64,000 nt of DNA from the NCBI GenBank assembly GCA_902797165.1, contig CADBRU010000018.1:1-64000 (forward strand), in the 5' to 3' direction. Origin of the DNA: an uncultured Elusimicrobium sp. (GTDB lineage Bacteria; Elusimicrobiota; Elusimicrobia; Elusimicrobiales; Elusimicrobiaceae). Below are positions 32,940-56,025 of this stretch, one piece after another (position 1 is the stretch's first letter; each line of letters begins with the position of its first letter). A model generated the notes under the pieces. That model made no database searches, was not told the DNA's origin, and saw nothing but the letters and a program-made list of their open reading frames with translations. Made by a program: the position numbers and the translations under genes.

Positions 32940-35900
32940 TTAGGACGGGTCGACTCCATAGCCATATCTAGACATATTTAATCTACCTGTTCCGTCCTGA
33001 ATGTTATTGTTTTCCGGTTGATAATCAAGACCTAATTCGATTACTTTCTTCATGTAAGCCAATGCATTGGCAACATTCATTTCACCTTGCAAGGTCTCAC
33101 ATTGACCGGTTCCTTCGAATAAGATCTTCCGGTAAGTTTGGCGATAGATCTCTCGATAATTTTCTGCTATCTTACCCGATTCCCACAAAGGAGCGGAAGG
33201 ATCTTGCTCTTGCTTACAGACCGGTATCGGACTGACGCGAGGATCTCCGTCAAACAGAGCGGCTAACGGATAGATATCTCCGTTCGGCGTTTCCACACGG
33301 GCCGCCTCAATCATACCGCGCGCCTTGCTGTCAATACAATGGTATTGATCAAACAGATAACGAGTCCAACGATACGGCGCTTTTCTGAAACGATCATCTT
33401 CGACAACACCGCCATTATCATTGCGTTGGATTTGTCCGCTCGGATAATAGGCAGAATCTACACCGACGTAGATGGCTACCGCACCGAAGTAGTTATGCAT
33501 GTTGGAGTTTGCTTTTTTGGCGCGGCTTACATGGCCGATACCGCGAGCAAACGAACATACAGCGGCTTTGGACACTTTGGCATTTTGATTCATCTGCAAG
33601 GCCAAGTTCAACGCATCCACAAATTGCGCCGCAGGCACCGCTTCCGGTACGTTATCCAGTAAGACCTTATCCGCATTGGTCGGATCTGCATGGAAGGCAT
33701 CAATGACGCTCTTTACATAATCGTAAGCAGCCGTCGTGGTGCTGGTATCCGCTGCAGCAGCATTTAATTTCACCAAGTCATCTTGGGAATTAAATTTCTG
33801 ATAGAGCACATCCGTACCGGACGGTTCCGTCCACGCTCCCATCAAAGATGTCTTAAAGGTCATCTTATCTTTGGTAGCCGCAACGGTGGCCATAGATCTG
33901 GCTAACGTTAAGAACGTTTTGCCGTCTAAACTGCCGTCTCTACAACCTTCGCTTTGCGTCATATCTTCGAACTTGTACTCACCTTCCACACAGGGTACAG
34001 TGATCGTACAATTCGTACCGGCAATCGTCTGTCTCTTATCTGTAGAGCATTGCGGTTGCTTGCCCGGATCATAAGGCTCCACAGGAATCGGTTTCTTGGT
34101 AGAATACGTCGTTTCACTGTGCGATACCTTAGTTGGATCATTCTTATCCGTTGCTACCCATTCCACCCGTTTTGTGATCGGGTTATCTTTGGTTGCACCG
34201 TTAAATAAGGAGGCGAATTCCTCGGCTTGGGCTTGCCCTAACTTATAGTGGCATACTCTGCCGGGGCACGGACCCACCGGGAGCAAGGCAGGATAACTGT
34301 CCACTCCGAACGTAATCTCAGGTGTACCGCCTTCCTCTTTATAGATGTTGACAATAACTTCAATATCATCTGAAGGTTTATATTTACTGTCAAAAGCCAA
34401 GTCTGCCTCAATATCTAACGGGCGTACAATGGAATTTGCAGTAATATTAAACCCGGCCCAAGGACATGCCTTCTTGACGGCTTTACCGTCAGATACAGGT
34501 TCTTCCACGTATAGATTCATGAAGTCTGCAAACTGCATCGGCATGACATCCATGGGAGGCAAACCGTAACGGCCGTTTGCCATTTTGTTTTTCATGATAT
34601 AACCTTCTATCATGATCGGATGCAATTTGGCAAAAATTTCTTTACCTTTTCCGCCCGTTTCACGGTCTAACACGGTAGTGACATCCCGTTCATACAAGGC
34701 ATGATTAAAGGTATCTCCTTTTGCCACATAAATCACACAGCCTCCGTACACACCGGAACCAATCTCTGAGTAAGCATCCCCAAGGTCATTGGGCGATATG
34801 ATGGCTCTACCCGGCTCACCCGGAGTAAGATCTACTTGCGTACCATTCGGTCTATAGGCTCTGGTATAAACTCTCTTAGCGTATGCAGTTTGGACCACAT
34901 CACCTCTGTATTCGCCGTTTTGGTCCAATACCTCACGTTCCAGTTTATACTTATTGCCTTTTCTGCTGCGCATATCAGTATCACCGCCACCGGAAACGGC
35001 ACGGCCTTTGTTTTGATACACATACGGAGAACACAACGGTTTCTTGTTACCCAAACTATCTTCGATTTCCATGTTCTCCACGATCACAGCATGGTAAGCA
35101 TGTTTCCATTTGGCGGCTTTTCCTTCACCTACTACTTTGAAGGTTTTGTTGATGATTAACTTATCACAACCATATGCAGCCACCGCACGGGTAATTCCTT
35201 CGAATTTACCTTGATACCCGTCAATACAATTGCGGCGAACGCCCCAACGGCTTAAGGCACCATGGCCCGGTTCACCATCTACCCATTTATTCTTGTCATT
35301 GCCGTCGAAGCCACCGTTTTTACAGGTATTCTTAAATGCGTCTTCACTCTTACAGGCTAATTCGGTCGCGTGTGTGGAACAATACTCTTCCATAGTAATG
35401 AAGTTAGCATCTTCACCAAACACTTTACAACCGCCCGGGGTTCCGGGAGTAGCCGGTTGAGGACCGCCTTTACCCATAGACCAGTCATCCGTACCGGTAG
35501 CCCAACAACTCAGGTATCCGGATAACCAACCGAACAAATCACCGATAATCTTGGCAATACCATCGGCTAACGGTTTGCGGAACAAGAAATATTTCCATTT
35601 CCATTTTTCCATTTCTTGTTGCTTCATCATGTCAAACCACCACGGTTGCAACGGTTTGGCACTGAAGGTACGGTTCATCGGACCGGAGCCGCCACCTGCG
35701 GCAAAGACGCCATCGCCTAAACCGCCTAATTTGCGGTTTTCGATGGGGCTATACAGAGCGTCTTTAATAGCCAACGTAGCATCGGCTTTGCCCATGGCTT
35801 CACGAGAAGCACGTGCTTGGGCCGCACTACCTTGACCACCGAAATAAGAACGAGACGGATTAGCCGCGCCGCGTAACGGAGTCAAAGAAACCGGTTTCGT

Positions 35901-36539
35901 ACCGCTCTTAGGAGCAGGACCCGAATTTTCTCTGGCCGCCGCTTTCAAGTTCGCACCGCCGAAACGGCTGCCGATACCGCCACCACCGCGGGCATTAAGA
36001 GAAGCACCGCGCAATTCATTGATCTTGGTCGGGTTCGGAGTCCGTTGGAAAGCCGCACGGGTTGCTGCCGGGGCTTCTTTGCGATACGTCGGCGTCACCG
36101 GTTGGCGGGACGGCCGAGAAGGCGGGACATAATCGTCAATATCGTCGTGCATGGCCGCCTGACGAGTAGGTTCTTCTTCCCCTAAGCGTTTAATTAAACT
36201 CATGGGATCCAAACCCGTCACTTGGGCAATTTCACCATCTCCCATACCGGGGTCATACGCGAAACGTTCCGGGGTGAAGTCATCTTGTACTAAACCCGGA
36301 GTAACAGAGGTACCGTCATCTACTGTACCGCTGTATTGATACAAAAACGGCAACATCAGCAAGGCCGCCGCGCCGGCAACCAAGAACGGAGCATCACGGC
36401 GCGTACGCTCAAAGAGCGTCTTTTTCGGTTTGCCATTGGAGCCGATTTTGGACGCACGTTTAGAGAACGGATTAAAAGCAGGCTTGCTGTTTTTAATCTT
36501 ATCGCTGAACGTGAATGAATCTTTTTTGTTCTCAGACAT
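32940..36539 (-). CDS. Large single-pass membrane protein of unknown function, Cys-rich exported part (1199 aa)
   Basis: A basic cytoplasmic head (1-48) is followed by one helix (about 50-69, PFLVAGAAALLMLPFLYQYS) and a Gly/Ser/Arg/Pro-rich stretch (about 80-290). The stretch includes TRAAFQRTP (160-168) and KINELRGASLNARGGGGIG...RFGG (172-195). The large C-terminal part (about 300-1199) has about 25 Cys and many aromatic residues and should fold in the periplasm or outside. No domain is recognised. The TRAAFQRTP motif recurs in the 705-residue neighbour and the GGG/FG motif in three others. The ribosome binding site AAGGAG and its own promoter (36699-36727) lie upstream after a leader of about 150 nt. 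Confidence 0.8.
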   Translation of the reverse strand: MSENKKDSFTFSDKIKNSKPAFNPFSKRASKIGSNGKPKKTLFERTRRDAPFLVAGAAALLMLPFLYQYSGTVDDGTSVTPGLVQDDFTPERFAYDPGMGDGEIAQVTGLDPMSLIKRLGEEEPTRQAAMHDDIDDYVPPSRPSRQPVTPTYRKEAPAATRAAFQRTPNPTKINELRGASLNARGGGGIGSRFGGANLKAAARENSGPAPKSGTKPVSLTPLRGAANPSRSYFGGQGSAAQARASREAMGKADATLAIKDALYSPIENRKLGGLGDGVFAAGGGSGPMNRTFSAKPLQPWWFDMMKQQEMEKWKWKYFLFRKPLADGIAKIIGDLFGWLSGYLSCWATGTDDWSMGKGGPQPATPGTPGGCKVFGEDANFITMEEYCSTHATELACKSEDAFKNTCKNGGFDGNDKNKWVDGEPGHGALSRWGVRRNCIDGYQGKFEGITRAVAAYGCDKLIINKTFKVVGEGKAAKWKHAYHAVIVENMEIEDSLGNKKPLCSPYVYQNKGRAVSGGGDTDMRSRKGNKYKLEREVLDQNGEYRGDVVQTAYAKRVYTRAYRPNGTQVDLTPGEPGRAIISPNDLGDAYSEIGSGVYGGCVIYVAKGDTFNHALYERDVTTVLDRETGGKGKEIFAKLHPIMIEGYIMKNKMANGRYGLPPMDVMPMQFADFMNLYVEEPVSDGKAVKKACPWAGFNITANSIVRPLDIEADLAFDSKYKPSDDIEVIVNIYKEEGGTPEITFGVDSYPALLPVGPCPGRVCHYKLGQAQAEEFASLFNGATKDNPITKRVEWVATDKNDPTKVSHSETTYSTKKPIPVEPYDPGKQPQCSTDKRQTIAGTNCTITVPCVEGEYKFEDMTQSEGCRDGSLDGKTFLTLARSMATVAATKDKMTFKTSLMGAWTEPSGTDVLYQKFNSQDDLVKLNAAAADTSTTTAAYDYVKSVIDAFHADPTNADKVLLDNVPEAVPAAQFVDALNLALQMNQNAKVSKAAVCSFARGIGHVSRAKKANSNMHNYFGAVAIYVGVDSAYYPSGQIQRNDNGGVVEDDRFRKAPYRWTRYLFDQYHCIDSKARGMIEAARVETPNGDIYPLAALFDGDPRVSPIPVCKQEQDPSAPLWESGKIAENYREIYRQTYRKILFEGTGQCETLQGEMNVANALAYMKKVIELGLDYQPENNNIQDGTGRLNMSRYGYGVDPS

Positions 36540-36698
36540 AAGATTTCTCCTTATCGGTTTCCGCCTTATACAACCAGGCGGATTTTACCACTGGGTCTTA
36601 CCGGCCGCTCGGACACGGCAAGGCCGAAACAACTGCTACTACACTTCACGTCTGTTACAACTACAACAAATCTAAGGGCGCAATACCCCCATACTAAT
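36540..36698 (-). other. Structured 5' leader of the 1199-residue protein gene
   Basis: About 150 nt separate the promoter from the ATG. Near the ribosome binding site CCGCCT and AGGCGG (36561-36581) form a 6-bp hairpin directly before AAACCGATAAGGAG. A GC-rich stretch at about 36600-36630 can also fold. It may control translation; no known riboswitch is recognised. Confidence 0.4.
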
Positions 36699-36727
36699 AT
36701 TAAAAGAATATTTCCCCATTCTGTCAA
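36699..36727 (-). promoter_or_regulatory. Near-consensus sigma-70 promoter of the 1199-residue protein gene
   Basis: On the minus strand TTGACA (36722-36727), a 17-nt spacer and TTTAAT (36699-36704). It lies only a few bases beyond the stop of the preceding gene, with no terminator between, so the gene can be expressed both alone and by read-through. Confidence 0.75.
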
Positions 36728-36731
36728 GACC

Positions 36732-38849
36732 CTATTTGTGTTTTTCCACCAATTGGATCAAGACGTCTTTTCCATCCACGTCAGAACTGGAGACTCTCCC
36801 GGACATGGTGGAGAAGAACGGATTCCACTCCGAGAAGTCCTTACCGGCATCTTCCACATCATTTTCGCCAATAACCATATTGAAACTGGTAATGACCCCT
36901 TCTCTTTTCACGGTATCTACTAAACCTACCCCGGCATAATGTTTGGTAGAGGAAACCTCTCCGCACGTACCGAACATACTCTGGTAGGCAGATTTCAGTT
37001 TGTTTCTCCCGTTTGGATCTTCCCCACCTTTGCCGTAAATCTCAAAAAACTTGTCATTGTAATTAAACAACGCTTCACCGAAATCTTTCTTTTTATTCCC
37101 GAACGAATTGTTTGCGGCTGTTTGCTGCGGAATAGCAACCTCCGCCAATTCCTTTTGCTTACCCCCCAGTATCCCTTCTTTTTCGGTTATTTCTGCCTGT
37201 AACTGCGCAATTAATGCCGTATCCGGTTCGGGCGCACTTTGGGCAGCGGCCAAAGCAGGTCTTAAATTATCGTCCAAGTCTCTATTTAAGGCCTCGATTT
37301 CATCCTGCAAACTTGCCACATAATCATCTGCGTCTTTTTTATTCTGTTCGGCCGTTTTTAACAGATCCAGTTGGGTATCATGTTTTGCAAGCAATTCTTC
37401 CAAAGCGCCGCATTTTTCGGTAAGGTCACTAGCATAATTCTGCAACTTATCTGCCGCGCAAAGACCCCGCTGCGGAGATTCGATTTTGCACAATTTGTTC
37501 ATGGTCTTATAAATCTCGTCTATGGTCTTACAATGACCGACCAATGTTTTGGAAACGGCGGTATCGTTTTGGGCGTCTCCCAAATTGGCAATCCACTTTT
37601 GAATATCATTCAAATCTTTGGGACAACTCAAGGGAATATCTTTGCGCATTGCTTTGATTTTCGGAGTGGCCATATTATCCAACACATCGCGAATATCTTC
37701 ACTGGCGATTTTAACTTGTTCGCGGCATTCCTCATCAGAAAGTAACTGTTTATCTTCCATTTCAAAGGCAACAGCAATCTCCTGCGGGCGGAAAATAGAA
37801 CCCGACGTTTTGCCGTCAGCCGTATATATTTTGCCGGGAATGCTCATGGCCATATATCCGCCGGTGGCTAATTGTTTTTTAAGCATTAACGGCTTTACTT
37901 CTTCGCCCAGAGAACTGTACAACCACACATAAGCCAAATCCCGCTCCGATTTATTTCCGGCGCTTAATCCGACGGACATTTTAGTCAGTCCGGTAGATTG
38001 TTCCTTGCCTTTGTCCGGTGATTTTTGCAAAGAAATTTCGCGCATGCCGGCGGCTTTGCCGACCGGGACTGCAAACAAATTCACCGGGGCCGCGCCCACG
38101 ATATCGGACTGTGCCAACATTTTGGCGGTATCTGCGGAATTGCCGACTCCGTTTTCCCGTTCGATTTCCGTGCGGGTTTGTAAGTCAGCGTCCGCACCGA
38201 AAAAGACTTCTTGTAAATTCTTTTGGGCTTGGGCTTCTTGAGCCTCTGCGCTCCAGCCTCTAGGGGTGCGTTGCAAAGCCGCGCGGGTGGCTTCTTCTTC
38301 CTCGTTAGGACGATAGGCCACCGCCCCCACCATAGCATCTGCCGCTTGCCCGTGCGCGCGTTTATAAGCGTTTACCGCACGCAAATTAAACAAATCCGAA
38401 TTGCTGCTTTCCGCACTGCTGCCGGCAGAGGTTGCGCCGGCTTGCGTGGCTACTTGTTGCTTTTCAAGTGAGGATCGGCCGGTTTGAATATCTTCAAAAC
38501 CGCCGTTACCGCCCTTGGCATAGAACAAAGAATTGTCCCTATTCTGCCACCCCATGCGCAGAGCACTGCCTACACTTTGGTTTTGCACGTCTTCGGCAGA
38601 CAAGCCAAACCGCGCCAATAAACCGCTTAACCCGGGAATACGCGCGGCCGGCACAAACAGTACAGTACCAAACAGGAAGACAACAAGCAGCAGTAGCAAC
38701 CATTTCTTTTTACCGCGGTGTTGCTCGGTATTTTTGGAAACTGTTTCCGCCTTGGCCGCCGCAGATTTGGACGCAGACGAAGCCGCAACAGAAACGGAGG
38801 GTTTCTTTTGTTGTGGTGACTTATTGATTTTGTTATCTTCCTGTTTCAT
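36732..38849 (-). CDS. Single-pass membrane protein with long coiled coil, unknown function (705 aa)
   Basis: The layout is a Lys/Ser/Ala-rich cytoplasmic head (1-48), one helix (WLLLLLVVFLFGTVLFVPAA, about 50-69), then a low-complexity zone with ATRAALQRTPRGW (187-199). A predicted beta-rich part follows (about 260-370: KSERDLAYVWLYSSLGEEV), then a long coiled coil (about 480-570: LQDEIEALNRDLDD, IAQLQAEITEKEGIL). The C-terminus ends ISTMSGRVSS-like residues and DVLIQLVEKHK. No family is recognised. The start at 38849 has CAGGGAG upstream; a longer frame from 38876 is rejected. It is the fifth gene of the cluster transcribed from 43.9 kb. Confidence 0.78.
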   Translation of the reverse strand: MKQEDNKINKSPQQKKPSVSVAASSASKSAAAKAETVSKNTEQHRGKKKWLLLLLVVFLFGTVLFVPAARIPGLSGLLARFGLSAEDVQNQSVGSALRMGWQNRDNSLFYAKGGNGGFEDIQTGRSSLEKQQVATQAGATSAGSSAESSNSDLFNLRAVNAYKRAHGQAADAMVGAVAYRPNEEEEATRAALQRTPRGWSAEAQEAQAQKNLQEVFFGADADLQTRTEIERENGVGNSADTAKMLAQSDIVGAAPVNLFAVPVGKAAGMREISLQKSPDKGKEQSTGLTKMSVGLSAGNKSERDLAYVWLYSSLGEEVKPLMLKKQLATGGYMAMSIPGKIYTADGKTSGSIFRPQEIAVAFEMEDKQLLSDEECREQVKIASEDIRDVLDNMATPKIKAMRKDIPLSCPKDLNDIQKWIANLGDAQNDTAVSKTLVGHCKTIDEIYKTMNKLCKIESPQRGLCAADKLQNYASDLTEKCGALEELLAKHDTQLDLLKTAEQNKKDADDYVASLQDEIEALNRDLDDNLRPALAAAQSAPEPDTALIAQLQAEITEKEGILGGKQKELAEVAIPQQTAANNSFGNKKKDFGEALFNYNDKFFEIYGKGGEDPNGRNKLKSAYQSMFGTCGEVSSTKHYAGVGLVDTVKREGVITSFNMVIGENDVEDAGKDFSEWNPFFSTMSGRVSSSDVDGKDVLIQLVEKHK

Positions 38850-38884
38850 AAAAACTCCCTGACAGTTAAATGTCAAACCGTCTC

Positions 38885-39145
38885 TTACTGGTTATAATCT
38901 ACCACTCGGCTTTGCTGGTTGTACTCTTGAGTACGTCGTTGCTGTGCCAAGCGTTTTTTATAATCGTCTAATCGTTGCTTGCGCTCTTGTGTGGCCAGTT
39001 GGCGGGCTTGCAAGTAAATCAGTTCCCGCTCCCCTTGCCGCATTTGGGCATTCGTATGGAAAACGACCACTAACCACACGACTACCAAGCATACAAATAG
39101 GGTAACACCCAATACTTTGCGTAATGTTTTATCAATATTTGCCAT
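38885..39145 (-). CDS. Small single-pass membrane protein with basic coiled coil (86 aa)
   Basis: One helix (VTLFVCLVVVWLVVVFH, about 14-30) is followed by a Gln/Arg/Lys-rich amphipathic tail (about 33-86: QARQLATQERKQRLDDYKKR) that should form a coiled coil. The topology resembles FtsL/FtsB-like linkers, but no specific family match can be claimed. It lies between two larger membrane proteins of the same cluster with gaps of 9 and 35 bp, so it is probably a structural partner of them. Confidence 0.7.
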   Translation of the reverse strand: MANIDKTLRKVLGVTLFVCLVVVWLVVVFHTNAQMRQGERELIYLQARQLATQERKQRLDDYKKRLAQQRRTQEYNQQSRVVDYNQ

Positions 39146-39154
39146 ACCAGTACC

Positions 39155-40669
39155 CTATTCCTCGGACTCCGGTTTTTCAAAACTACCGTCCTTAATAGAG
39201 GTTACTACTTCCTTACCAAAGCCGAATATGCCGCCTAATTGACCGCCCATACCCAAAATGTGCGACATAGATCCGGGCTCAAGACCAAACCAACCGCCGA
39301 TTTTGTCAGCAAGGCCTGTCATAAACGTAGCAACCTTATCCACAAAAGCCAAACCGATAATGCCCGCCATTACTAATGCAAGCGCACCAAAGGTCCATGC
39401 CGGGCTGGCCTCTTGTTGACCGTATGCGACCCCATAAGCAATAGCAAAGCCAAGCAAAGTGGCGCAGAAAGCCCACATGGTCCCTGCCAAAATCCACGCA
39501 CCCGCCATTCCATAGCCAGTGGATACCAATGCGGCAATTGTGAAAAATGCTCCAAGAACCATAGGTAATAATGCAGCAAACATATTTAACAAATGAGTAC
39601 GAGCCACTAAACGTTTGGTTCCTTCATCTTCAATATTTGCAGTGTTTTCTTGTACTGCTTCTTCCACGCTATCAGCCGTATATTCCCCTTCGTCAAAATC
39701 ACCCAAACTGCTTTTGCTTTCAAAAGCACCCGGATCATCGTAGGTAATGGTAGTACCGCGGGCACCCATAAAGGCGGTGGTAACGGCTTCGTTATCTGAT
39801 TTGAAACGTTTTTTGGCCATTGCGGCAGAAGTTTTGGAAATAAATTTCAAATCATCCGCTTCTTTGGACATTTGGACATTTCCGCTACGGTGCGCTTTGA
39901 AATCATCGCGAGAAGGCTTATAGGACGGATCCCGGAAATTGTTGTTTGATTTCACAAAAGCCGCACTGCCGGTAGGCATAGAGCCGCTGAGCGCATTTAC
40001 ATCCGGCATATTGACAGGAGACACCGGGTTCGTTCCCACGGCCCCGTTAGCGACACGGCCCCCCGTAGAAGAAGAAGCGCTGCCACGAGAACCGAAAGAG
40101 GCAGAACTACCGCCGCCGGAGGCACGCGCCATGGTGGCAGAGGTTAACTTATTTACCTTATTACCGCCTTCCTCTTTTTCCCCTTCCGTACCGGCATTTT
40201 GTCCTTGTCCGTTGGCTTTGGTTTTAATAGCACCGCGCACATTGGCAGACGGATCATTTACCTCTCCGCCGCTTACGCCGCCCCCCAAATCAGTGGCTTC
40301 ATTGCCGCCCATGCCCAGGCCTACTTCTCCGCGGCCTAAGGTGCGGCCGCTGAATTTCATGGCTTCCACATTGGCCACTGCGGCATCCCCGCCGTCAAAT
40401 TGGCTGAGGAAGTCTTGTTCATCTTGGGCAGAGGCCAAGGCCAACTTGCCGGAAAAACTTTGTTCAATACCCGCATATTCGGCAGGTAAAGCGCCGTTTT
40501 GGTTAATAATATCGGCTATGCGGCGTACTTCGTGTTGATCCGGCACTTCCGGAGTTTGGAAGTAACTTGAGACAGTCAATGCCAAACTGGTCAACATGAC
40601 GCCCATCACAGCCACACGCATACCTGATACAGCCCCGGTACGGTTTTTCAAGATTTCTAAGATTTTCAT
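39155..40669 (-). CDS. Multi-pass membrane protein with Gly-rich exported region, unknown function (504 aa)
   Basis: An N-terminal helix (about 17-36) is followed by a Gly/Ala/Asn-rich exported stretch with KVNKLTSATMARASGGGSS then SFGSRG (171-196), a motif shared with three neighbours. An acidic middle part follows. Unlike its neighbours it ends with about three more helices (about 360-445, LLPMVLGAFFTIAALVSTGY and WTFGALALVMAGIIGLAFV) and a Gly-rich tail, so it could be the membrane core of the cluster's complex, a role that multi-pass proteins play in other secretion machines. The ATG at 40669 has GGGAGG upstream. No family is recognised. Confidence 0.75.
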   Translation of the reverse strand: MKILEILKNRTGAVSGMRVAVMGVMLTSLALTVSSYFQTPEVPDQHEVRRIADIINQNGALPAEYAGIEQSFSGKLALASAQDEQDFLSQFDGGDAAVANVEAMKFSGRTLGRGEVGLGMGGNEATDLGGGVSGGEVNDPSANVRGAIKTKANGQGQNAGTEGEKEEGGNKVNKLTSATMARASGGGSSASFGSRGSASSSTGGRVANGAVGTNPVSPVNMPDVNALSGSMPTGSAAFVKSNNNFRDPSYKPSRDDFKAHRSGNVQMSKEADDLKFISKTSAAMAKKRFKSDNEAVTTAFMGARGTTITYDDPGAFESKSSLGDFDEGEYTADSVEEAVQENTANIEDEGTKRLVARTHLLNMFAALLPMVLGAFFTIAALVSTGYGMAGAWILAGTMWAFCATLLGFAIAYGVAYGQQEASPAWTFGALALVMAGIIGLAFVDKVATFMTGLADKIGGWFGLEPGSMSHILGMGGQLGGIFGFGKEVVTSIKDGSFEKPESEE

Positions 40670-40693
40670 AATGCCTCCCATATATCCAAAATT

Positions 40694-42115
40694 TTAGTCC
40701 TTCTTTTCCGCACGTTCCGGCCAATAGAAGTTGGCTTTCTTATCAAATGCATTCATCGGCTTTTCTTTACTTTTTCCCCAATATTTGAACAAATCTTTTC
40801 TTTCCATACTGCTGCGGATATCTCCGACAACATCCAAGAACTCATTCATATTATCCTCTAACATCGGATGATCTTTGAACTGTTTCTTGAAACCATTGAC
40901 TTTTTTGTCCATTTCTTCGACTTGTTCTTTTAAGCGTTTCCGCGCTTTTATGACTTTAATAGCATGCACAATCGGAATCCACCCCCAGCCATTATGAAGT
41001 TTTTCATATGACTCTTGCAATTTTTTGGCTTCTTCTTCCAAGGCGTCTCTCAATTTAGATTTTTCTTCCGCAAATTGCGTCAACAGTGCATTTTCACCAA
41101 TTTTCCCCGGAACGGAAGCAACCTGTTCAAAATCAGAAGAACTGGCTCCGCCTGTAGTAACTTGCCCACCGACAATCATGATTCCGTTATTGCCTCTTCC
41201 GGCTAAAGCAAACTGCGTTACCGCGTTGGCAGAGCGGTTACCGTCTTTGGCTAATTCAGCCGAGAATTTGAGGTATTGTTCTACTTCATCCTCTCCTTTT
41301 ACACGATACTCTTTACCCGCTTCAATAACGGCATCGCGGCCGCCGTCATATTGGGCCGTACGCGGGGTGGTACTTTGAATAGAAGGGCTGTCGGCTCCTT
41401 GCGGGGTTTGTACTTCGTTAGAGCGATTGACTCCGGTCGGGCGTAAACCTTCCGCACCGAATGAACCGCCACCGGCACCGGCCATACCGCCATTACGGTC
41501 AAGTTGACCGATTTTGACCGGCTTACCGTCCGGCCCGATTAAACCTTCCGGACTTACCCCTTCGGGCAATTTCCCGGCCGAGGCTGCCGCACCGGCTTCT
41601 TGCTGCTTACTGGCAATCATGGCTTGCATATCGGCCATTTGTTGTTGCAAGGCGCTCAAATCTCCTTTGCCCGGGTTGCCGCTATCTACAAAACCTTTAT
41701 TTCCCATGTTCAAGCCTGTATTTTGCGCACCGTCCATTTTATAGGCTTGCATAATTTCATCTGCATCATCATTGGAAGGGTTAACCGGTTCGGGTTGCTT
41801 CATAGAGTCTTCTTCCATCAGTTGTAAAGAGCGTGATTGTTTGACCCGAATGGCAGAGCGAATTTCACCGCCGTCGGCATCTTGTGCATCAACATAGCCC
41901 ACGCCGTGGTACATACCGCTGGTATTGCCGGTTACATAGACGTAATTGTCATCGTTGGATGAAAATGCCGTGTCCGGATTGACATCCGAAGAGCCGGTCA
42001 TCATCATACCTACTCCGATGACCCCCACGGTGGTGGCGGCTAAAATGCCGGCGGTCTGCGCGGCGGAAAGCCCCCATTTGCCCGTGTTGTTTAAAATCAT
42101 TTTAATTAAGTTCAT
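40694..42115 (-). CDS. Single-pass membrane protein of the Gly-motif cluster, unknown function (473 aa)
   Basis: A helix at about 19-40 (AQTAGILAATTVGVIGVGMM) is followed by an acidic stretch and then KIGQLDRNGGMAGAGGGSFG (201-220), the cluster's shared Gly motif. Further on lie a compact part with VTQFALAGRGNNGIMIVGGQ (about 303-322) and a long charged probable coiled coil (about 345-425: EEEAKKLQESYEKL, KRLKEQVEEMDKKV). No domain is recognised. It begins 25 bp after the stop of the 561-residue gene and is separated by 24 bp from the 504-residue gene, consistent with one transcript. Confidence 0.75.
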   Translation of the reverse strand: MNLIKMILNNTGKWGLSAAQTAGILAATTVGVIGVGMMMTGSSDVNPDTAFSSNDDNYVYVTGNTSGMYHGVGYVDAQDADGGEIRSAIRVKQSRSLQLMEEDSMKQPEPVNPSNDDADEIMQAYKMDGAQNTGLNMGNKGFVDSGNPGKGDLSALQQQMADMQAMIASKQQEAGAAASAGKLPEGVSPEGLIGPDGKPVKIGQLDRNGGMAGAGGGSFGAEGLRPTGVNRSNEVQTPQGADSPSIQSTTPRTAQYDGGRDAVIEAGKEYRVKGEDEVEQYLKFSAELAKDGNRSANAVTQFALAGRGNNGIMIVGGQVTTGGASSSDFEQVASVPGKIGENALLTQFAEEKSKLRDALEEEAKKLQESYEKLHNGWGWIPIVHAIKVIKARKRLKEQVEEMDKKVNGFKKQFKDHPMLEDNMNEFLDVVGDIRSSMERKDLFKYWGKSKEKPMNAFDKKANFYWPERAEKKD

Positions 42116-42140
42116 AATTGCCTCCTAAAATCGAATGATT

Positions 42141-43826
42141 CTACTTCTTACCTACTAATACCCAATTAGGCTCACTGGCCGTACCTGTATTATTGAACGT
42201 TCTTCCATCTTGCGTAGTTAATGTCATACCATTGTTGCTCAAGCGGCCATATACATTTCCGCCACCATACGAAATTTGGTCACCGTGACTACCACTATTA
42301 TACGTGTTCCCGCCATAACCGTAACCGTTACCGCCATAACCACCATAGCCATAACCGCTGTTCATCTTGGCATTTTCTCCGATTATATTAATGGCATTGG
42401 AAACATTAGCATCATTGTGTAATATCCAATCTACTTTCTTACTATCATCCCAACTGCCCCATTTTTTGGCGGCTCTCCCGTCCGTCGGCACAGCACTTAA
42501 ATCAACGTTCACACTTTGACCGCCGATATTGATCGGAACAGTAGAAGAGGGTTTAACCGGTTCGGTCGGTTTTACAGGGGGCAGCAATCCGGACATAGGA
42601 TCATAAGTTTCCATTTTTTGGTTATATTCTGCTAAGTTAGCTTGATATTGCATTTGTTGTTGCTGATAATTTTCCATAGCCTGCCCGTATGCTTTGTATT
42701 GATCCGTCGCTTGAAGACCACCTTCATAATAACCCGCGTTTTGTGCGCGTGCTTCCATTTGCCAAGCATTTACGGAATTGGAAAGCATTTGCTGACCGAC
42801 AGAAGTGGCTAAATTGATCGCCCCTTCCACGATCATGGTTAAAGCCTTTTCCCCTAATTCTTCCAAGAAACTCTTTTCTTCTTCTTGTTTATCCTCTTTT
42901 TCCGCATTTTCTTTGGCATTTTTTAAGGCATCATCCAGTCCGCTCAAACCCGGGGTGGCTATAGGAGCATTGGTATCTAAATTTAAGCCTTTGGCATCCC
43001 CTAAATTTACACCCGTGTCCGTAAAGGCCTTGCTCCCGTCAATAGTACCGCCTATCATGGCTTTTTTGGCGTTGGCCAATTTGTTATCTTTCAGACCCGC
43101 CGCGGCACGGCTTCCTTGTGAGACTTGATACAAAGCCTTCCGCGCATCCCCGCTACCCGGGCCCATAGCCGGGGCTTTATCATATCCTTTATTTTGGCTC
43201 TTAAAATTGGAAAAGTCACCGCGCGGACCGAAAGTACCACTCATGCCGGACCCTCTGCCGCCCCCTTTAAGGCTGGAACTGTTCAGTTTCTCCACTTGGG
43301 TTTTGGTGCCGCTGCCGCGTCCGCCGCGAGCGCCTGCGTAAGCACCGCTACTACCGCCGTAGCGGCCGTCCCGGTAATTATTGGCTCCGCCTTCTTCATT
43401 ATGATCTTCGTCTTCGTCATCGGCTTCTTCTGCGTCTTCCGCTTGGCGGGCTGCCTTTTCTTCTTCGGAATACAAACCGGTTGTCTTGACGTCTTGCATA
43501 TCCGGGTATTTGGAAGCCAGTAAATATTGTTCCGCTTCATCACTGGAAAAAGGCATATTGGCTAAATCGTAACCGCGAGATTCATAATCGGAGAAATTTT
43601 CCGGATCGGAAGAAGATGCCGCCGAACCTAAAAACAACAGGGCCACAAATCCCACTAAAACAATAGCGCCCCAGGTGTACGCTTGTTTACGGTCCATGGA
43701 ATTTAATTTCTTCCAAGAACCTTTTAAGGCTACCAGCGGACTTTCTCGTTTTTCATTGGGTTTATCGGCAGACTGTGTTTGTTTGCCCGCTTTCACCTTT
43801 GTTTTATTCTTAAATAAATTGAACAT
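42141..43826 (-). CDS. Single-pass membrane protein with Gly/Tyr-rich tail, first gene of the cluster (561 aa)
   Basis: A basic head (1-48) and one helix (about 51-70) precede a very acidic stretch (about 118-147: EEADDEDEDHNEE) and a Gly/Arg-rich zone with QVEKLNSSSLKGGGRGSG and TFGPRG (177-203), the cluster motif. A helical middle part follows (about 300-400, rich in Gln/Tyr/Asn: YQQQQMQYQANL). The C-terminal quarter has a Gly/Tyr repeat (about 488-515), of the type seen in sticky or self-associating low-complexity proteins. No family is recognised. It has its own near-consensus promoter and AAGGAGAG before the ATG. Confidence 0.75.
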   Translation of the reverse strand: MFNLFKNKTKVKAGKQTQSADKPNEKRESPLVALKGSWKKLNSMDRKQAYTWGAIVLVGFVALLFLGSAASSSDPENFSDYESRGYDLANMPFSSDEAEQYLLASKYPDMQDVKTTGLYSEEEKAARQAEDAEEADDEDEDHNEEGGANNYRDGRYGGSSGAYAGARGGRGSGTKTQVEKLNSSSLKGGGRGSGMSGTFGPRGDFSNFKSQNKGYDKAPAMGPGSGDARKALYQVSQGSRAAAGLKDNKLANAKKAMIGGTIDGSKAFTDTGVNLGDAKGLNLDTNAPIATPGLSGLDDALKNAKENAEKEDKQEEEKSFLEELGEKALTMIVEGAINLATSVGQQMLSNSVNAWQMEARAQNAGYYEGGLQATDQYKAYGQAMENYQQQQMQYQANLAEYNQKMETYDPMSGLLPPVKPTEPVKPSSTVPINIGGQSVNVDLSAVPTDGRAAKKWGSWDDSKKVDWILHNDANVSNAINIIGENAKMNSGYGYGGYGGNGYGYGGNTYNSGSHGDQISYGGGNVYGRLSNNGMTLTTQDGRTFNNTGTASEPNWVLVGKK

Positions 43827-43867
43827 ATTCTCTCCTTACTCATATATAAAAATCCACTCTTGCTGAC

Positions 43868-43890
43868 CCGTTAGGCATTTGCCTACGCTC
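43868..43890 (-). other. Small hairpin in the leader of the 561-residue protein gene
   Basis: TAGGC, an AAAT loop and GCCTA lie in the roughly 95-nt leader between promoter and ATG. It is too short to name as a known element. Confidence 0.3.
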
Positions 43891-43927
43891 ATACACAGAG
43901 TTTATTTTCGCACCATCTTATATCATT

Positions 43928-43956
43928 AGTATAAACACTTAAAAGCCCTTTGTCAA
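43928..43956 (-). promoter_or_regulatory. Near-consensus sigma-70 promoter of the six-gene cluster
   Basis: On the minus strand TTGACA (43951-43956), a 17-nt spacer and TATACT (43928-43933). It is the best promoter match in the window and lies just after the terminator of the tad locus, so the cluster is a separate and probably well-expressed unit. Confidence 0.85.
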
Positions 43957-44021: not shown

Positions 44022-44555
44022 CTATCTGTTCTCCGGACGACGCCACGGCAATACCCGCTCGTTGGGGCCTACATATTTAATGACCTCAATTTCGCCCCCT
44101 GTTTCACACAGATAGGCAAAACCCGTTAAACAATTTTGGTCATTTTTACATAATTGCAACTTATCGTATTTACACAAAAATTTAATCCGCGGAGGCGCAG
44201 TCCGCACCGTCATTTTAACTTGTGTCCAAGTACCGGACCGGTTGATCTTGAGGGTCAAACTGCGCAAACTGAGCAACCGCTTCATGCCCGGATTATTAAA
44301 ACCTAAATAGTTTTCTACTTTCTTTTTAATATCTTTCTCTAAGTAGCGGCGATCCCAGCGTTGCAGAAAGTCGGTCATATGTGATTGCAATTGAAAACGA
44401 CGCGCAGCATAAAACCCGGCAATTTCCATTTTTTGGGTCAAAACGAGCAGGCCGAAAATCTTGATAATAAAGATGATAAAAATCACCAAGATCGGAAATA
44501 ATAACACAACTTCCGTGGTGGCTTGTCCTCGATTGGAAAAAGATATTTTTCTCAT
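44022..44555 (-). CDS. tadE: TadE-family pseudopilin-like protein (second copy, 177 aa)
   Basis: The N-terminus SNRGQATTEVVLLFPILVIF is the TadE signature: a Gly, then Glu at +6, in front of a hydrophobic helix (about 18-40) that a prepilin peptidase can cleave. The remaining 135 residues form a basic, mostly soluble domain with four Cys in CKYDKLQLCKNDQNC and a later CETGG. TadE pseudopilins are minor components of Tad pilus assembly at the inner membrane. It overlaps the TadG-like gene by four bases and is the last gene before the terminator. A first TadE is encoded at 59889. Confidence 0.85.
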   Translation of the reverse strand: MRKISFSNRGQATTEVVLLFPILVIFIIFIIKIFGLLVLTQKMEIAGFYAARRFQLQSHMTDFLQRWDRRYLEKDIKKKVENYLGFNNPGMKRLLSLRSLTLKINRSGTWTQVKMTVRTAPPRIKFLCKYDKLQLCKNDQNCLTGFAYLCETGGEIEVIKYVGPNERVLPWRRPENR

Positions 44556-45715
44556 ACACCCACCTTTACGCTGTACTTTGAAATGGGATTAGGCCATATA
44601 CAATTATTACTGCGGCGCGGACAACTTAAAATGACCGAGTTACGCACGTACGGATGATACCGTTGCGTCAAATTAATATTAAAACGGTTTTCCGGCAATT
44701 GATATTTTTGCTTAAGCACAACCCCTTTGGCCAGTTGTTTTAATTGTTTGCGGCTCTTGGGTGTTAAGTAAGCAAATTGAAATATATTTGTTTTTAAGTC
44801 TTCCATCGGTTTAATCGGAATGGCATACGAACCGCTGTGATATTTTCCGCTTTTTTCATTGGCGCCGCCATAGTCCGCCGTTACGTAAAAACGCATGGTT
44901 TCGGTAATTTCAAAGGGTTCGGTTTCCAAAATAAAACGGTCCAACGTAGCAGCGGCTTGTTTCCCGCAGTCTTTGCGCGTACAGTCTTTGGTATTTAAGA
45001 AATAACTTTCCCGGAACATGCGGCTTTTATTAACGGTATCTTTATACGAATAAGCCTGTGCCTTATAAACACCGCCCAAACGTATATAAGTGGTTAAATA
45101 AGTGCGGATGTTTTCCAATGCTATACCCGTGGCGCTGAAGAAATAATTATCCGCCACCTTTTTATTGGTCATTACGTAAGTACCTTTATCATCCTCATTG
45201 TCATCCCCGTTATTAAGTGAGGGAGAAGGATCTTCTTTATTCCAATTTTCACGGGTTCCGTTGTAATAAGCAAATCCCCAATCATCATCTTCAGGTGAAG
45301 GAACAAACTGCGTAACGGCTCCGTTCTTTCCCGTTTTGCCTTTGTTGGGACCGGCCGCCGGGAAAGCCCCCGCCATATAAAAAGCATCAAAAATAGTGGG
45401 CGGGTTACTTTTGTCCGGTAAATTTGCTTTCGGCGGCAGTTCGTAACCGAAGTTTCCGCTTTGCATAACGCGGAAAGGCAAAGGACCGTTCACCTGCGCC
45501 ACCGCGTTTAAGAAACCGCTGGTACTCGACATTTGGGAATAGGCTCCGTTATCTAAGGCAAATTGCTGACGCACTTTTGTCATGGATAACTTGGAGGTTT
45601 CAAACAATAAATATACCACCAAAATAAAAATAGGCGCAAGCATTACCGCCGGCAGCAAAATTTGCGCGCGCCGGTTTTGTACGACCTTTTTTATTTGATT
45701 CGGTATATGCATCAT
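44552..45715 (-). CDS. TadG-like pilus assembly protein (387 aa)
   Basis: It begins with a basic segment and one helix (about 18-43: RRAQILLPAVMLAPIFILVV) followed by MTKVRQQFALDNGAYSQ, the layout of TadG/TadE-like N-termini in which the membrane segment precedes a long periplasmic domain. The domain (about 60-387) is polar with a few Cys near CTRKDCGK and SCPRRSNNC. The von Willebrand-type domain of classical TadG is not obvious, so the call rests on the N-terminus and the neighbours. It lies between a Flp pilin and tadE, overlapping both by four bases, which suggests one translational block. Confidence 0.65.
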   Translation of the reverse strand: MMHIPNQIKKVVQNRRAQILLPAVMLAPIFILVVYLLFETSKLSMTKVRQQFALDNGAYSQMSSTSGFLNAVAQVNGPLPFRVMQSGNFGYELPPKANLPDKSNPPTIFDAFYMAGAFPAAGPNKGKTGKNGAVTQFVPSPEDDDWGFAYYNGTRENWNKEDPSPSLNNGDDNEDDKGTYVMTNKKVADNYFFSATGIALENIRTYLTTYIRLGGVYKAQAYSYKDTVNKSRMFRESYFLNTKDCTRKDCGKQAAATLDRFILETEPFEITETMRFYVTADYGGANEKSGKYHSGSYAIPIKPMEDLKTNIFQFAYLTPKSRKQLKQLAKGVVLKQKYQLPENRFNINLTQRYHPYVRNSVILSCPRRSNNCIWPNPISKYSVKVGV

Positions 45716-45894
45716 TTAGATATCATTTGCCCCACAAACATAAAAAACCAACGTACAATATCTGTGTGAAACGCCGTTACAAAAGCAGAAAATATCACCA
45801 AAATACTACCCAGCATAAGGACATATTCGATACTGGCTTGTCCTTTACGCCGGCGTACTTGATGCCAAAGACTTTTGAAACGGCTTAGTTTCAT
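45712..45894 (-). CDS. Flp-type pilin, third copy (60 aa)
   Basis: The basic leader MKLSRFKSLWHQVRRRKG is followed by QASIEYVLMLGSILVIF. Flp prepilins have this G-x5-E-Y pattern and are cleaved after the Gly by TadV-type peptidases; only the helix of about 40 residues remains. At 60 residues the length is normal for the family. Unlike the two Flp genes at 60.4-60.8 kb, it is placed with TadG- and TadE-like genes behind the regulatory genes, so it may be a minor or alternative subunit. It begins 1 bp after the response regulator stop. Confidence 0.85.
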   Translation of the reverse strand: MKLSRFKSLWHQVRRRKGQASIEYVLMLGSILVIFSAFVTAFHTDIVRWFFMFVGQMISK

Positions 45895-46590
45895 TTATTC
45901 TTCGTCCTCGTCCTCTACAAAATGGGTCCCTTCCGAAGAAATTAAGCCTTGTTCAATGGCTTTGACCACTGCTTCGGTGCGGCTGCTGACACCCAATTTG
46001 TGAAACGCACTGTTCAAATGGTTTTTAACTGTTTTAACACTACAGTTTAAGGCTTTGGCCAGTTCCTTATTGCTCAGCCCCTTTCCCAGTAAATCCATCA
46101 CTTTGATTTCCGTTTTGGTCAAAGTAGCCTGTGTGGGCAAATTCGATTGTCCCATACTGCGCAAACCGTGCAGCAGTTTGCCCATCATTTGTTGCGGGAT
46201 CATCAGCCCTTCTGCGGTAAATGTTTTGATGGAATTAACCAGTTCCGCCGCCGGTAACATTTTGGACAAATAACCGTTCGCCCCGGATTGTATAGCGTCT
46301 AACACATGTGCTTCATCTTCAAAAGAAGACAACATCAGCACATTTACCTCCGGTGCGGCCTCATGGATTTTTTTGGTAGCGGATATACCGTCCAGTTTAG
46401 GCAATTTAATATCCATAAGCACCACATCCGGTTTTAATTTTTTGGCCAGAGCGACTGCTTCCAGACCGTCTGCGGCTTCCCCTACTACTTCCAACCATTT
46501 TTCATTGCTCAGCACGTCTCTGATCCCTTCCCGAAACAAAGTTTGATCATCTGCAATTAAAATAGTTATCTTCTTCTTTTTTGCTGGCAT
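45895..46590 (-). CDS. NarL/LuxR-family response regulator
   Basis: This 231-residue two-domain regulator has a receiver (about 8-125) with DDQ near the start, phosphoacceptor in VVLMDIKLPKLDG (Asp at about 53), LMLSSFEDE and LSKM (Lys). A LuxR-type HTH follows (about 155-210: LTKTEIKVMDLLGKGLSNKE, then VKTVKNHLNSAFHKLG). Phosphorylation should drive dimerisation and DNA binding at target promoters, plausibly those of the tad or downstream cluster genes. The start at 46590 was chosen for a GGAGTGG ribosome binding site; an in-frame ATG at 46602 is the alternative. It is the third gene of the regulatory block. Confidence 0.93.
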   Translation of the reverse strand: MPAKKKKITILIADDQTLFREGIRDVLSNEKWLEVVGEAADGLEAVALAKKLKPDVVLMDIKLPKLDGISATKKIHEAAPEVNVLMLSSFEDEAHVLDAIQSGANGYLSKMLPAAELVNSIKTFTAEGLMIPQQMMGKLLHGLRSMGQSNLPTQATLTKTEIKVMDLLGKGLSNKELAKALNCSVKTVKNHLNSAFHKLGVSSRTEAVVKAIEQGLISSEGTHFVEDEDEE

Positions 46591-46605
46591 ATGCCACTCC
46601 ATTTT

Positions 46606-47727
46606 TTAATTTCCGCCGATAGGCAAAGTAAACGCAAAACAAGCCCCCAAACCTAGGCCTTGACTTTGCGCCCAAATCTGCCCGCCGTGATTGGTTACAA
46701 TATCCTTAGCAATCGATAATCCCAACCCCAAACGGCCCACGCGGTTTTTATCACCTACTTGCGTAAAACTTGTAAACAAAGAAGGTGCTTTTTCCGGATC
46801 AATTCCATCCCCGGAGTCCGTTACCGATACTTTAGCATTTTTTTCATCTAATTTGCTAACTACTACTTTGATCTTTCCGCCATCGGGCGTATGACGCACC
46901 GCATTTTCCAACATATTGGAAATAACTTGGCGGATACGCTTTTCGTCAGCAAAAACCGGTATGCTTTCATTACTTTCAAAAGTCACTTCGATATTGCGCT
47001 TACTGGCTTTATCTTTGAAAATTTCGGTGGTCTTTTTCATGCTGGCGGTCAACTCAAAGTTATTTTTCTCAATGCGCAGTTTCCCTTTTTCAATAGCCGC
47101 CCAGTCCACCAGATCCTTAATCAAATGCTCAATTTGCCCGATACTTTCATCCATGTAAGACATTTTTTTGGTTTGTTCTTCATCGGGAGTCATTTTGCGC
47201 TTAAGCATATCAAAACTCATTTTCAAAGTCATCAGTGAATTGGACAAGTCATGCGAGACAATGGAAAAGAATTTTGATTTCATGTTATTCAAACGGTCCA
47301 AATCCGCATTGCGTGCTTGCAACTGCGCCAATAACTGTTTGTTACTTTGTTCCAAAAAGTATTTATCCAAGGCCCGATGAATAGTGCGTTTCAGGTAATC
47401 GAAATCTACCGGTTTAATAAGGAAATCATAAACAGATTCTTTCATGGCTTCCATAATGGAGTTTAAAGAAGCATAGGCCGTAATCATTACGATTTGGCTC
47501 TCTTGGTTAAAACCGCGTATCTTGCGAATTAAATCAAGCCCCGTTTCGTCCGGCAAGTTATAGTCCATTAAAATTACGCTGAAAAACTCCGAGGAAACCA
47601 AATCAATACATTCCTTGCCGTTTCCCGCTTGATATACGCGGTATCCTTCAATTTCCAACAAATCCGCCAATGTTTCACGCAGGTTATTATCATCATCTAC
47701 AACTAAAATCTTAACGTGCTGGTCCAT
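46606..47727 (-). CDS. Receiver-histidine kinase hybrid (373 aa, soluble)
   Basis: An N-terminal receiver (1 to about 122: ILVVDDDNN, Asp in VILMDYNLPDETG, MITAYAS, FLIKPVDF) is joined by a coiled coil (about 125-148) to a HisKA box, SIVSHDLSNSLMTL (His at about 158). The ATPase domain follows with NMLENAVRHTPDGG (about 284), DSGDGI and GRLGLGLSIAKDIV. It has no membrane segment. The receiver-first order fits an internal relay between the upstream sensor kinase and the downstream LuxR regulator. It overlaps the sensor kinase gene by 17 bases, and GGAGATA precedes the ATG. Confidence 0.92.
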   Translation of the reverse strand: MDQHVKILVVDDDNNLRETLADLLEIEGYRVYQAGNGKECIDLVSSEFFSVILMDYNLPDETGLDLIRKIRGFNQESQIVMITAYASLNSIMEAMKESVYDFLIKPVDFDYLKRTIHRALDKYFLEQSNKQLLAQLQARNADLDRLNNMKSKFFSIVSHDLSNSLMTLKMSFDMLKRKMTPDEEQTKKMSYMDESIGQIEHLIKDLVDWAAIEKGKLRIEKNNFELTASMKKTTEIFKDKASKRNIEVTFESNESIPVFADEKRIRQVISNMLENAVRHTPDGGKIKVVVSKLDEKNAKVSVTDSGDGIDPEKAPSLFTSFTQVGDKNRVGRLGLGLSIAKDIVTNHGGQIWAQSQGLGLGACFAFTLPIGGN

Positions 47728-49600: not shown

Positions 49601-49620
49601 GCTGAATACCTCTTTCAAAA

Positions 49621-49653
49621 ATGGGGGCAATCAGATTATGCTGATGCCCCCAT
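49621..49653 (-). terminator. Hairpin (terminator or attenuator) before the tad-locus kinase gene
   Basis: On the minus strand ATGGGGGC and TCAG pair with CTGA and GCCCCCAT, followed by T5. It ends 20 bases before the kinase start with no room for a promoter after it, so the regulatory genes seem to depend on read-through. Confidence 0.75.
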
Positions 49654-49672
49654 CGGTTTCCTTTCAAAACAG

Positions 49673-50623: not shown

Positions 50624-50636
50624 TTTTTCCCCTCTT

Positions 50637-50909
50637 TTATTCTTTATCTTCCAGTTCGACAGTTACTGCACGTACTCCAATGGCACATAACACATTGTAA
50701 ACAAACAAGAAACATACAGTAAATACCAAGAACAACAAAGTGTTTAAAATAGATTGCATAATCATATTCATGAAGAATTGCAAATTAAACACTACATCCG
50801 GGTTAAAAGCACCCATGATGCCACTAATCAGCATGACCGCAAATACTGCCACCGGAAATGCTGAGAAAATGACGTTTAAAACTCCGATCTTTTTAATTGC
50901 TATTTTCAT
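50637..50909 (-). CDS. Small two-helix membrane protein, DUF3566-like (90 aa)
   Basis: Two long hydrophobic stretches (about 9-32 and 52-77) are separated by a short loop with Asn/Asp, and the chain ends VRAVTVELEDKE. The pattern of a KKIGVLNVIFSA-type head and a GV..VTVELE tail recalls DUF3566 membrane proteins, but this is a weak resemblance. It lies 13 bp before the thioredoxin-fold gene and 32 bp after the HAMP sensor, so it is part of the tad transcript. Its function is unknown. Confidence 0.65.
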   Translation of the reverse strand: MKIAIKKIGVLNVIFSAFPVAVFAVMLISGIMGAFNPDVVFNLQFFMNMIMQSILNTLLFLVFTVCFLFVYNVLCAIGVRAVTVELEDKE

Positions 50910-50941
50910 CTTTCTCTCTCCATTGGGATTGACACCCTGTT

Positions 50942-52060: not shown

Positions 52061-52066
52061 AATCTA

Positions 52067-53482: not shown

Positions 53483-53495
53483 AAATACAGTCCTC

Positions 53496-54380: not shown

Positions 54381-54382
54381 AC

Positions 54383-56011: not shown

Positions 56012-56025
56012 ATTTCTACACTACT

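What the first reader, a model, noticed from the sequence alone, without database searches (positions are those of the whole stretch)
32940..43826. Six-gene cluster of membrane-anchored low-complexity proteins sharing a K[IV]xxL...GGG...FGxxG motif
Seen in sequence: six consecutive genes encode a short cytoplasmic head, one N-terminal helix and (except the 86-residue one) a long exported part. Four share one motif: QVEKLNSSSLKGGG..TFGPRG (561 aa, 177-203), KIGQLDRNGGMAGAGGGSFG (473 aa, 201-220), KVNKLTSATMARASGGG..SFGSRG (504 aa, 171-196) and KINELRGASLNARGGGG..RFGG (1199 aa, 172-195). The motif sits 100-180 residues after the helix in otherwise unlike proteins, which argues for a common docking or assembly function. 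Inference: the proteins form one envelope-spanning complex beside the Tad pilus locus. I recognise no known family in any of them.
Basis: partly seen in the sequence, partly recalled or inferred. Interest (0 to 1): 0.8.

Follow-up and report, generated by a model that had tools for sequence, protein, structure and literature searches.

The report
RNA-led pilus-neighbour envelope operon
A six-gene set found only in one family of gut bacteria makes related membrane-anchored proteins beside a pilus locus, and a previously undescribed folded RNA sits in front of it and of its broken-off pieces, which suggests dedicated RNA control of one envelope machine.

Summary
The six genes are real and conserved as a unit, in the same order, in nearly all genomes of the genus. 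Recognisable pieces occur in three other genera of the family; nothing was detected outside it. No Pfam, NCBIfam, PHROGs or PDB family matches. The motif is more than chance, but partly misread. The conserved core is about T-P-T-x-[IV]-x-x-L-x-x-A-S-[LM]-x-x-x-S-G-S-G-x(4)-F-G. The proteins are not 'otherwise unlike': P473 and P508 are full-length paralogues, and P561 shares a motif-plus-helix module with P508, P473 and P1199. P508 has three more C-terminal helices. The K[IV]xxL in P473 is peculiar to this genome. Linkage to tad is frequent (47 of 49 genus genomes scorable on one contig) but breakable.

A sigma-70-like promoter and a ~60-nt leader RNA, strongly covarying and absent from Rfam, precede the operon: one copy per genome, every copy (bar one at a contig end) ahead of a member of this gene set. 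Where P1199 has moved away (three genomes), it has its own copy.

Best guess: an inner-membrane/peptidoglycan-anchored accessory complex of the Tad machine under a dedicated leader RNA. Conservation, paralogy and the RNA fold are shown; the complex, the Tad link and the mode of regulation are inferred.

The parts
43928..43956 (-). promoter TTGACA-17-TATACT of the operon
   Evidence: 11/12 match to consensus; the same promoter lies upstream of P561 in all 19 genus loci inspected, with close variants in other genera of the family
43844..43904 (-). structured leader RNA (P1 ACUCU/AGAGU, UG/CA, UGA/UCA, variable hairpin) plus the following U-rich tract
   Evidence: 96.3% of cells paired; 10 of 15 pairs changed on both sides; covariation score 0.626 against 0.24 shuffled and at most 0.18 slid; fold z -3.2; R1 match 64.0 bits, E 5.8e-15, the only copy in this genome; no Rfam match
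42141..43826 (-). P561: cytoplasmic head, TM 53-71, acidic and Gly-rich arm, motif 177-203, conserved module to about residue 290, variable tail
40694..42115 (-). P473: TM 21-39, Ala/Gly-rich, paralogue of P508; degenerate motif
39155..40681 (-). P508: N-terminal TM 17-35, Gly/Ala/Ser-rich exported region with motif, three C-terminal TMs (368-447)
38885..39145 (-). P86: bitopic TM 11-29 plus short charged helix
   Evidence: orthologues in the same position throughout most of the genus
36732..38849 (-). P714 (705 aa from the likely ATG; the open ORF starts at TTG 38876): TM plus exported part with six invariant Cys in orthologues
32940..36539 (-). P1199: near-invariant cytoplasmic head (1-48), TM 49-67, motif 172-195, conserved to about residue 306, then a variable Cys-rich exported domain
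   Evidence: orthologues of other genera carry an OmpA-like domain here
44022..59822 (-). neighbouring Tad locus: RcpC/CpaB, secretin, CpaE-CpaF fusion, TadB, TadC, TPR, HAMP protein, sensor kinase, hybrid, response regulator, Flp pilin, two TadE/F-like genes
   Evidence: Pfam matches

Best explanation
The region 32940-43956 is a transcription unit specific to one family of Elusimicrobiales. Shown by comparison: six genes kept in order; four products (P561, P473, P508, P1199) share a diverged module, namely an N-terminal membrane anchor, a low-complexity arm, a short conserved segment (TPTx[IV]xxLxxAS[LM]...SGSG...FG) and a helical stretch; a conserved sigma-70-like promoter; and a conserved, covarying leader RNA of about 60 nt ending some 30 nt before the start codon. 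Inferred: P1199 is the scaffold. Its near-invariant cytoplasmic head docks to a cytoplasmic partner, one TM crosses the inner membrane, and the exported part ties to peptidoglycan (by an OmpA-like domain in two other genera; the genus of this window has replaced that domain). The paralogues P561, P473 and P508 line up on it through the shared segment, and P714 and P86 complete a periplasmic assembly that braces or feeds the neighbouring Tad pilus machine. The leader RNA senses a signal or binds a protein and sets the translation (or transcript elongation) of the whole operon, so that the parts are made together. When P1199 leaves the operon it is found behind its own copy of the leader.
For: Unit conservation and order. 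P561 in 73 of 130 relatives, all within the family; P1199 in 48 of 199 phylum genomes, all within the family. Paralogy. Motif above shuffled controls. Invariant cysteines in the exported parts of P714 and P1199 fit an oxidising compartment. OmpA-like domain in P1199 orthologues: Pfam OmpA E 0.0038 and 0.0039, PDB OprF C-terminal domain E 0.0011 with the GHTD...LSxxR residues. Tad adjacency in 47 genomes, and TadE-P561 adjacency in parts of genera g13 and g15. Leader RNA covariation, one copy per genus genome, 72 of 78 copies within 117 nt of a P561-family hit. Of the other six, three precede a detached P1199, one precedes a P561-like ORF that the A1 profile missed (L118), one is separated from P561 by an insertion and one lies at a contig end.
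Against: No direct evidence of a complex, of location or of contact with Tad proteins. Nearly every genome of the family has tad, so co-occurrence is uninformative, and the cluster is detached from tad in at least nine genomes. The OmpA-like domain is weakly scoring, degenerate in genus g13, and absent from this window's P1199 and its genus. Tad is present throughout the sister family f2 without these protein families, so the proteins are not needed for Tad as such. RNA function is inferred from conservation only; in E. minutum-like G090 the detached P714 has no detectable leader.
Confidence: 0.5

Rival explanations
1. The cluster is an independent surface or secretion system (adhesive matrix or filament of low-complexity proteins tipped by the variable P1199 domain) that merely sits next to tad.
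For: Variable Cys-rich C-terminal half of P1199 against its invariant N-terminal part looks like a surface-exposed domain under diversification. The cluster stays together when it leaves tad (L105, L108, L128). It has its own promoter.
Against: Strong tad linkage in 47 genomes. No secretion ATPase or outer-membrane channel of its own among the six genes. OmpA-like domain in relatives suggests a periplasmic place.
Confidence: 0.27
2. The shared motif has no docking role; it is a relic of common ancestry in fast-evolving linkers, kept by composition (Gly/Ser/Ala) alone.
For: The proteins carrying it share a larger module, and in P473 and P508 the K[IV]xxL half has decayed.
Against: It is the best-conserved island in otherwise poorly conserved arms and is recognisable in P561 and P1199 orthologues of other genera (sequences). 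Scores exceed column-shuffled controls that keep composition.
Confidence: 0.3
3. The conserved leader is a DNA operator or a simple transcription terminator rather than a regulatory RNA.
For: It lies just behind the promoter and is followed by a U-rich tract; part of it is an inverted repeat.
Against: Pairing is kept through many different base pairs and loops of very different length (10 of 15 pairs with two-sided changes), which a protein-DNA site does not need. The closing stem has only 5 pairs with an A/G spacer before the U tract, and the element precedes, not follows, genes.
Confidence: 0.2

Closest known systems
Tad (tight adherence, Flp) pilus locus
   Same: Immediate neighbour in most genomes, same strand, behind the two TadE/F-like genes. 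Tad systems in Elusimicrobia are already reported (PMC6668835).
   Different: None of the six proteins matches a Tad component; they are not found in the sister family's genomes; own promoter and leader.
OmpA-like peptidoglycan-binding bitopic proteins (architecture of MotB)
   Same: P1199 orthologues in genera g12 and g13 combine a cytoplasmic head, one TM and an OmpA-like segment.
   Different: Very long extra exported region; the domain is missing in the genus of this window; no MotA-like partner recognised.
VirB6/TrbL-type polytopic proteins
   Same: N-terminal TM, long loop, several C-terminal TMs in P508; one relative's Pfam hit to TrbL at E 0.02.
   Different: Far below cut-off; no conjugation ATPases or VirB10 family match in the tested genes; treated as chance.
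Riboswitches and other cis-regulatory leaders in Rfam 15
   Same: Short conserved 5' leader with covarying stems and conserved internal loops upstream of one operon.
   Different: No family reaches significance; found only in one bacterial family and one gene set within the phylum; other phyla not searched.
Sister-family f2 gene (f2a) behind tad
   Same: Membrane-anchored Gly/Ala/Ser-rich protein in the same place with its own promoter and a leader hairpin plus U tract.
   Different: No profile similarity above shuffled controls, apart from the bare TM with P714, and a different leader sequence; an analogue in position only.

Membership tests
Tad pilus components (TadE/F/G, RcpB/C, TadD, TadV) | Match to the family profile | tested here: not met
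   No Pfam or NCBIfam match for any of the six proteins; the same searches do find TadE, RcpC, secretin, T2SSE and T2SSF in the neighbours
Tad pilus components (TadE/F/G, RcpB/C, TadD, TadV) | Presence wherever the Tad locus occurs | tested here: not met
   CpaF in 125 of 130 relatives; P561 and P1199 only in the family f1
OmpA-like C-terminal domain proteins (PF00691) | Profile match and conserved Asp/Arg ligand residues | tested here: inconclusive
   Orthologues in other genera: Pfam E 0.004, OprF domain E 0.0011 with GHTD and LSxxR, below Pfam's cut-off; window P1199 no match
Type IV secretion VirB6/TrbL, VirB10 | Profile match plus T4SS ATPases in the locus | tested here: not met
   TrbL E 0.02 in one relative only, none in the window; no VirB4/VirD4 match among the tad genes tested
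Known Rfam cis-regulatory RNA | Score above the gathering cut-off of a family | tested here: not met
   Best E 2.7 in the leader region; other copies no relevant hit
Structured cis-regulatory leader RNA (as a kind) | Covarying base pairs beyond column shuffles and slid controls | tested here: met
   Covariation score 0.626 against 0.241 (sd 0.017) shuffled and at most 0.179 slid
Structured cis-regulatory leader RNA (as a kind) | Located in the 5' leader, behind a promoter, upstream of a consistent gene set | tested here: met
   (promoter by consensus only)
Structured cis-regulatory leader RNA (as a kind) | Changes expression on a signal | not testable with these tools
   Needs reporter fusions and in-line probing

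The most novel reading that the evidence does not exclude
The leader is a new class of cis-regulatory RNA (riboswitch or protein-responsive) devoted to one envelope machine of a single bacterial family: it marks the operon in nearly every genome and is found in front of operon pieces that have moved elsewhere. The machine itself is a new kind of inner-membrane/peptidoglycan-anchored assembly built from duplicated low-complexity paralogues.
Probability: 0.4. Interest if true: 0.8.

Novelty: new variant of a known kind. Interest (0 to 1): 0.62.

Why it matters
Tad loci have well-known cores, but lineage-specific accessory envelope parts are mostly uncharted. Here one family has added a rapidly evolving, self-duplicating set of membrane-anchored proteins and put it under a dedicated structured RNA that accompanies the genes through rearrangements. 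That ties an uncharacterised protein set to a testable regulatory element. If the RNA binds a second messenger (a diguanylate cyclase gene lies near tad in the family) or one of the operon's products, it would show how an envelope machine is switched in a poorly studied phylum of gut bacteria.

Tried and rejected
Pfam, NCBIfam, PHROGs and PDB sequence searches for the six proteins: nothing significant. P86 hits to GspM/FtsL (E 2e-4 to 6e-3) rejected: far below cut-offs and typical of any bitopic coiled coil. TrbL/VirB6 and SDF hits in relatives rejected as TM-driven. ATRAA[LF]QRTP shared by P714 and P1199 of this genome: not conserved in P714 orthologues, and no profile similarity; rejected. 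Homology of the sister-family f2a protein with P561, P508, P473 or P1199 rejected. Viral-contig matches to a leader pattern rejected: the RNA model does not match them. OmpA-like remnant in the genus's own P1199: no significant match. Literature: no paper found on this cluster or a leader RNA in Elusimicrobiota.
Full report
What is there. The window belongs to a 1.31-Mb draft genome (G000:C18) of the order Elusimicrobiales; its nearest named relative by the CpaF protein is an uncultured Elusimicrobium (87% identity). On the minus strand a Tad pilus locus runs from RcpC/CpaB (59070-59822) through secretin, a CpaE-CpaF fusion, TadB, TadC, TPR, HAMP, kinases, response regulator, Flp pilin and two TadE/F-like genes to 44022. 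After 195 bp the six genes of the finding follow: P561, P473, P508, P86, P714 and P1199. P508 is 508 aa in the ORF list and 504 aa from the later ATG, and P714 starts more plausibly at an ATG (705 aa).

Are the genes a unit? Yes. In 14 regions fetched around homologues of P473 the genes occur in the same order and strand, and six further genus regions agree; P86 is missing or unrecognised in a few. A P561 profile finds one match in nearly every genome of the genus and weaker ones in genera g12, g13 and g15 of the same family, none among the other order genomes searched. A P1199 profile over 199 genomes of the phylum matches only this family. Genus g16 has P714- and P1199-like genes and a row of similar Gly/Ala/Ser-rich genes behind tad. 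Where both CpaF and P561 lie on one contig, P561 is 11-14 kb behind CpaF on the same strand in 47 genus genomes; the exceptions are G030 and G084. G004 is also detached, since its tad locus ends without the cluster. In G090, whose single contig of 1,643,562 bp equals the size I remember for Elusimicrobium minutum Pei191 (memory, not tested), the pieces are scattered: P1199 at 646 kb, P561 with P508-like and P86-like genes at 711 kb, P714 at 773 kb, tad at 1,303 kb. G095, G097 and G099-G101 are likewise separated from tad.

How are the proteins related? Profile-profile alignment makes P473 and P508 full-length paralogues (99.9%, E 5.7e-36); profile HMMs of one hit members of the other. With about 20 orthologues per family, P561 aligns with P508 over 170 columns (E 6.4e-7), with P1199 over 86 columns (E 5.6e-5) and with P473 over 218 columns (E 1.5e-4). 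None of 40 controls with locally shuffled columns reached any of these scores. So four of the six are members of one diverged family; P714 and P86 show no such link. The conserved core reads TPTQVxxLNSASLKxASGSGxxxTFG in P561, TKINELGxASLNxRGGGGxxxRFGG in P1199 and LQRASMARASGSNLG..FG in P508; in P473 only GMARASGxNL remains. The literal pattern K[IV]xxL..GGG..FG is rare in orthologues. Islands of conservation in fast-evolving, Gly/Ser/Ala-rich arms are what a short binding segment looks like, but binding is an inference.

Topology and place. Each protein has an N-terminal hydrophobic helix; P508 has three more at its C-terminus. Orthologues keep six invariant cysteines in P714 and several in P1199, which fits an exported part. 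The first 70 residues of P1199 (cytoplasmic head and TM) are almost invariant, while its C-terminal half varies strongly; the head is recognisable in genera g12 and g13 too. P1199 orthologues of those genera carry an OmpA-like segment, for example IEGHTDWAGTYKYNIGKLSENRVQAVKDLM in G090: Pfam OmpA E 0.0038 and 0.0039, PDB OprF domain E 0.0011. The genus of this window lacks it. The simplest reading is an inner-membrane protein that once tied, and in some genera still ties, to peptidoglycan.

The leader RNA. Upstream of P561 all 19 genus loci inspected have TTGACA-17-TATACT, followed by AACTCTGTGTTTGAGCG-[hairpin]-CGGGTCAGCAAGAGT and a U-rich tract, with close variants in g12, g13 and g15. On 36 copies (A8) the two-stem structure keeps 96.3% of pairs. 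Ten of 15 pairs change on both sides, and the covariation score is 0.626 against 0.241 (sd 0.017) in shuffles and at most 0.179 when slid; an unguided consensus fold gives the same stems. P1 switches from ACUCU/AGAGU to GCUCC/GGAGC or GGGGC between genera, and the first pair of the outer hairpin flips between C-G and G-C. Single copies fold better than shuffles (z -2.8 to -4.9). Rfam has no match. A covariance model finds 78 copies in 72 of 130 relatives: one in each genus genome with a match, two in g12 and in several g13 genomes, none in the sister family, and none outside the family among 295 genomes of the phylum. Of the 78 copies, 72 lie within 117 nt of a P561-family hit. Of the other six, three precede a detached P1199 (G090 and G095; G097), one precedes a P561-like ORF missed by the profile (G100), one is separated from P561 by a ~0.7-kb insertion (G095) and one lies at a contig end (G066). 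The RNA therefore accompanies this gene set, not tad. In the window it spans 43904-43844, its closing stem ends about 30 nt before the P561 start, and a Shine-Dalgarno-like AAGGAGAG lies between. Whether it acts on translation, elongation or stability is open. Two facts bear on a second-messenger idea without proving it: diguanylate cyclase (GGDEF) genes exist in all seven genomes checked, and one lies about 8-10 kb beyond CpaF on the other side of the tad locus in G000, G071, G016 and G090.

Sister family. Family f2 has the same tad locus, but behind TadE it carries a different membrane-anchored Gly/Ala/Ser-rich protein (f2a, 41 of 91 order genomes), with its own promoter and another leader hairpin followed by a U tract. 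Profile comparison shows no homology to P561, P508, P473 or P1199. A position behind tad for such proteins, each with an RNA leader, thus seems common to the order while the actors differ.

Verdict. New: a family-specific leader RNA that tracks the gene set. I call the whole a new variant of a known kind (Tad-neighbouring accessory envelope operon under a cis-acting leader RNA).

Noticed in passing
window 43844-43956 and 78 copies in relatives: Conserved promoter and covarying leader RNA upstream of the operon and of its detached pieces; absent from Rfam.
   Followed up: yes
L131, L145, L147-L150 and L151-L162 (sister family f2): Behind TadE in f2: FtsH-like AAA+ protease in some genomes, a ~440-aa membrane-anchored Gly/Ala/Ser-rich protein with a Cys-rich tail, then in several a 2200-4000-aa giant protein; promoter TTGAAA-17-TATAAC and a different conserved leader hairpin with U tract.
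   Followed up: partly
L143 (G094, genus g16) 2346-18057: Row of about six Gly/Ala/Ser-rich genes, most with N- and C-terminal TMs, between TadE and P714/P1199-like genes: apparent expansion of the P508 type.
   Followed up: partly
L133 (G092, genus g14) 76-160: A different strong hairpin with U7 tract and promoter-like TTGACA-TAGACT downstream of TadE; R1 matches only at 16.6 bits, E 0.3.
   Followed up: partly
L101 6028-9324: Tandem duplication of the P508-P86 gene pair in genome G023.
   Followed up: no
G000:C18:67300-67773 (just outside the window): GGDEF protein gene near tad; the same linkage in G071, G016 and G090.
   Followed up: partly
window 61911-63923 and 60856-61818: Protein with FlgD-Ig and weak CHU_C (type IX sorting-like) match, followed by a UPF0164-like protein, upstream of the tad locus.
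   Followed up: no
L126 17394-19909, L113 16188-18856, L196: In several relatives a TPR gene and ksgA follow the cluster; in G090 a TPR-like and a KsgA-like ORF follow the detached P714.
   Followed up: no
L117 1400-2150: ~0.7-kb insertion with a small ORF separates the leader RNA from P561 in G095.
   Followed up: no
window 44022-44555 (TadE-like, 177 aa): Unusually well conserved for a minor pilin (58-79% in the genus), with four invariant cysteines in its C-terminal half.
   Followed up: no
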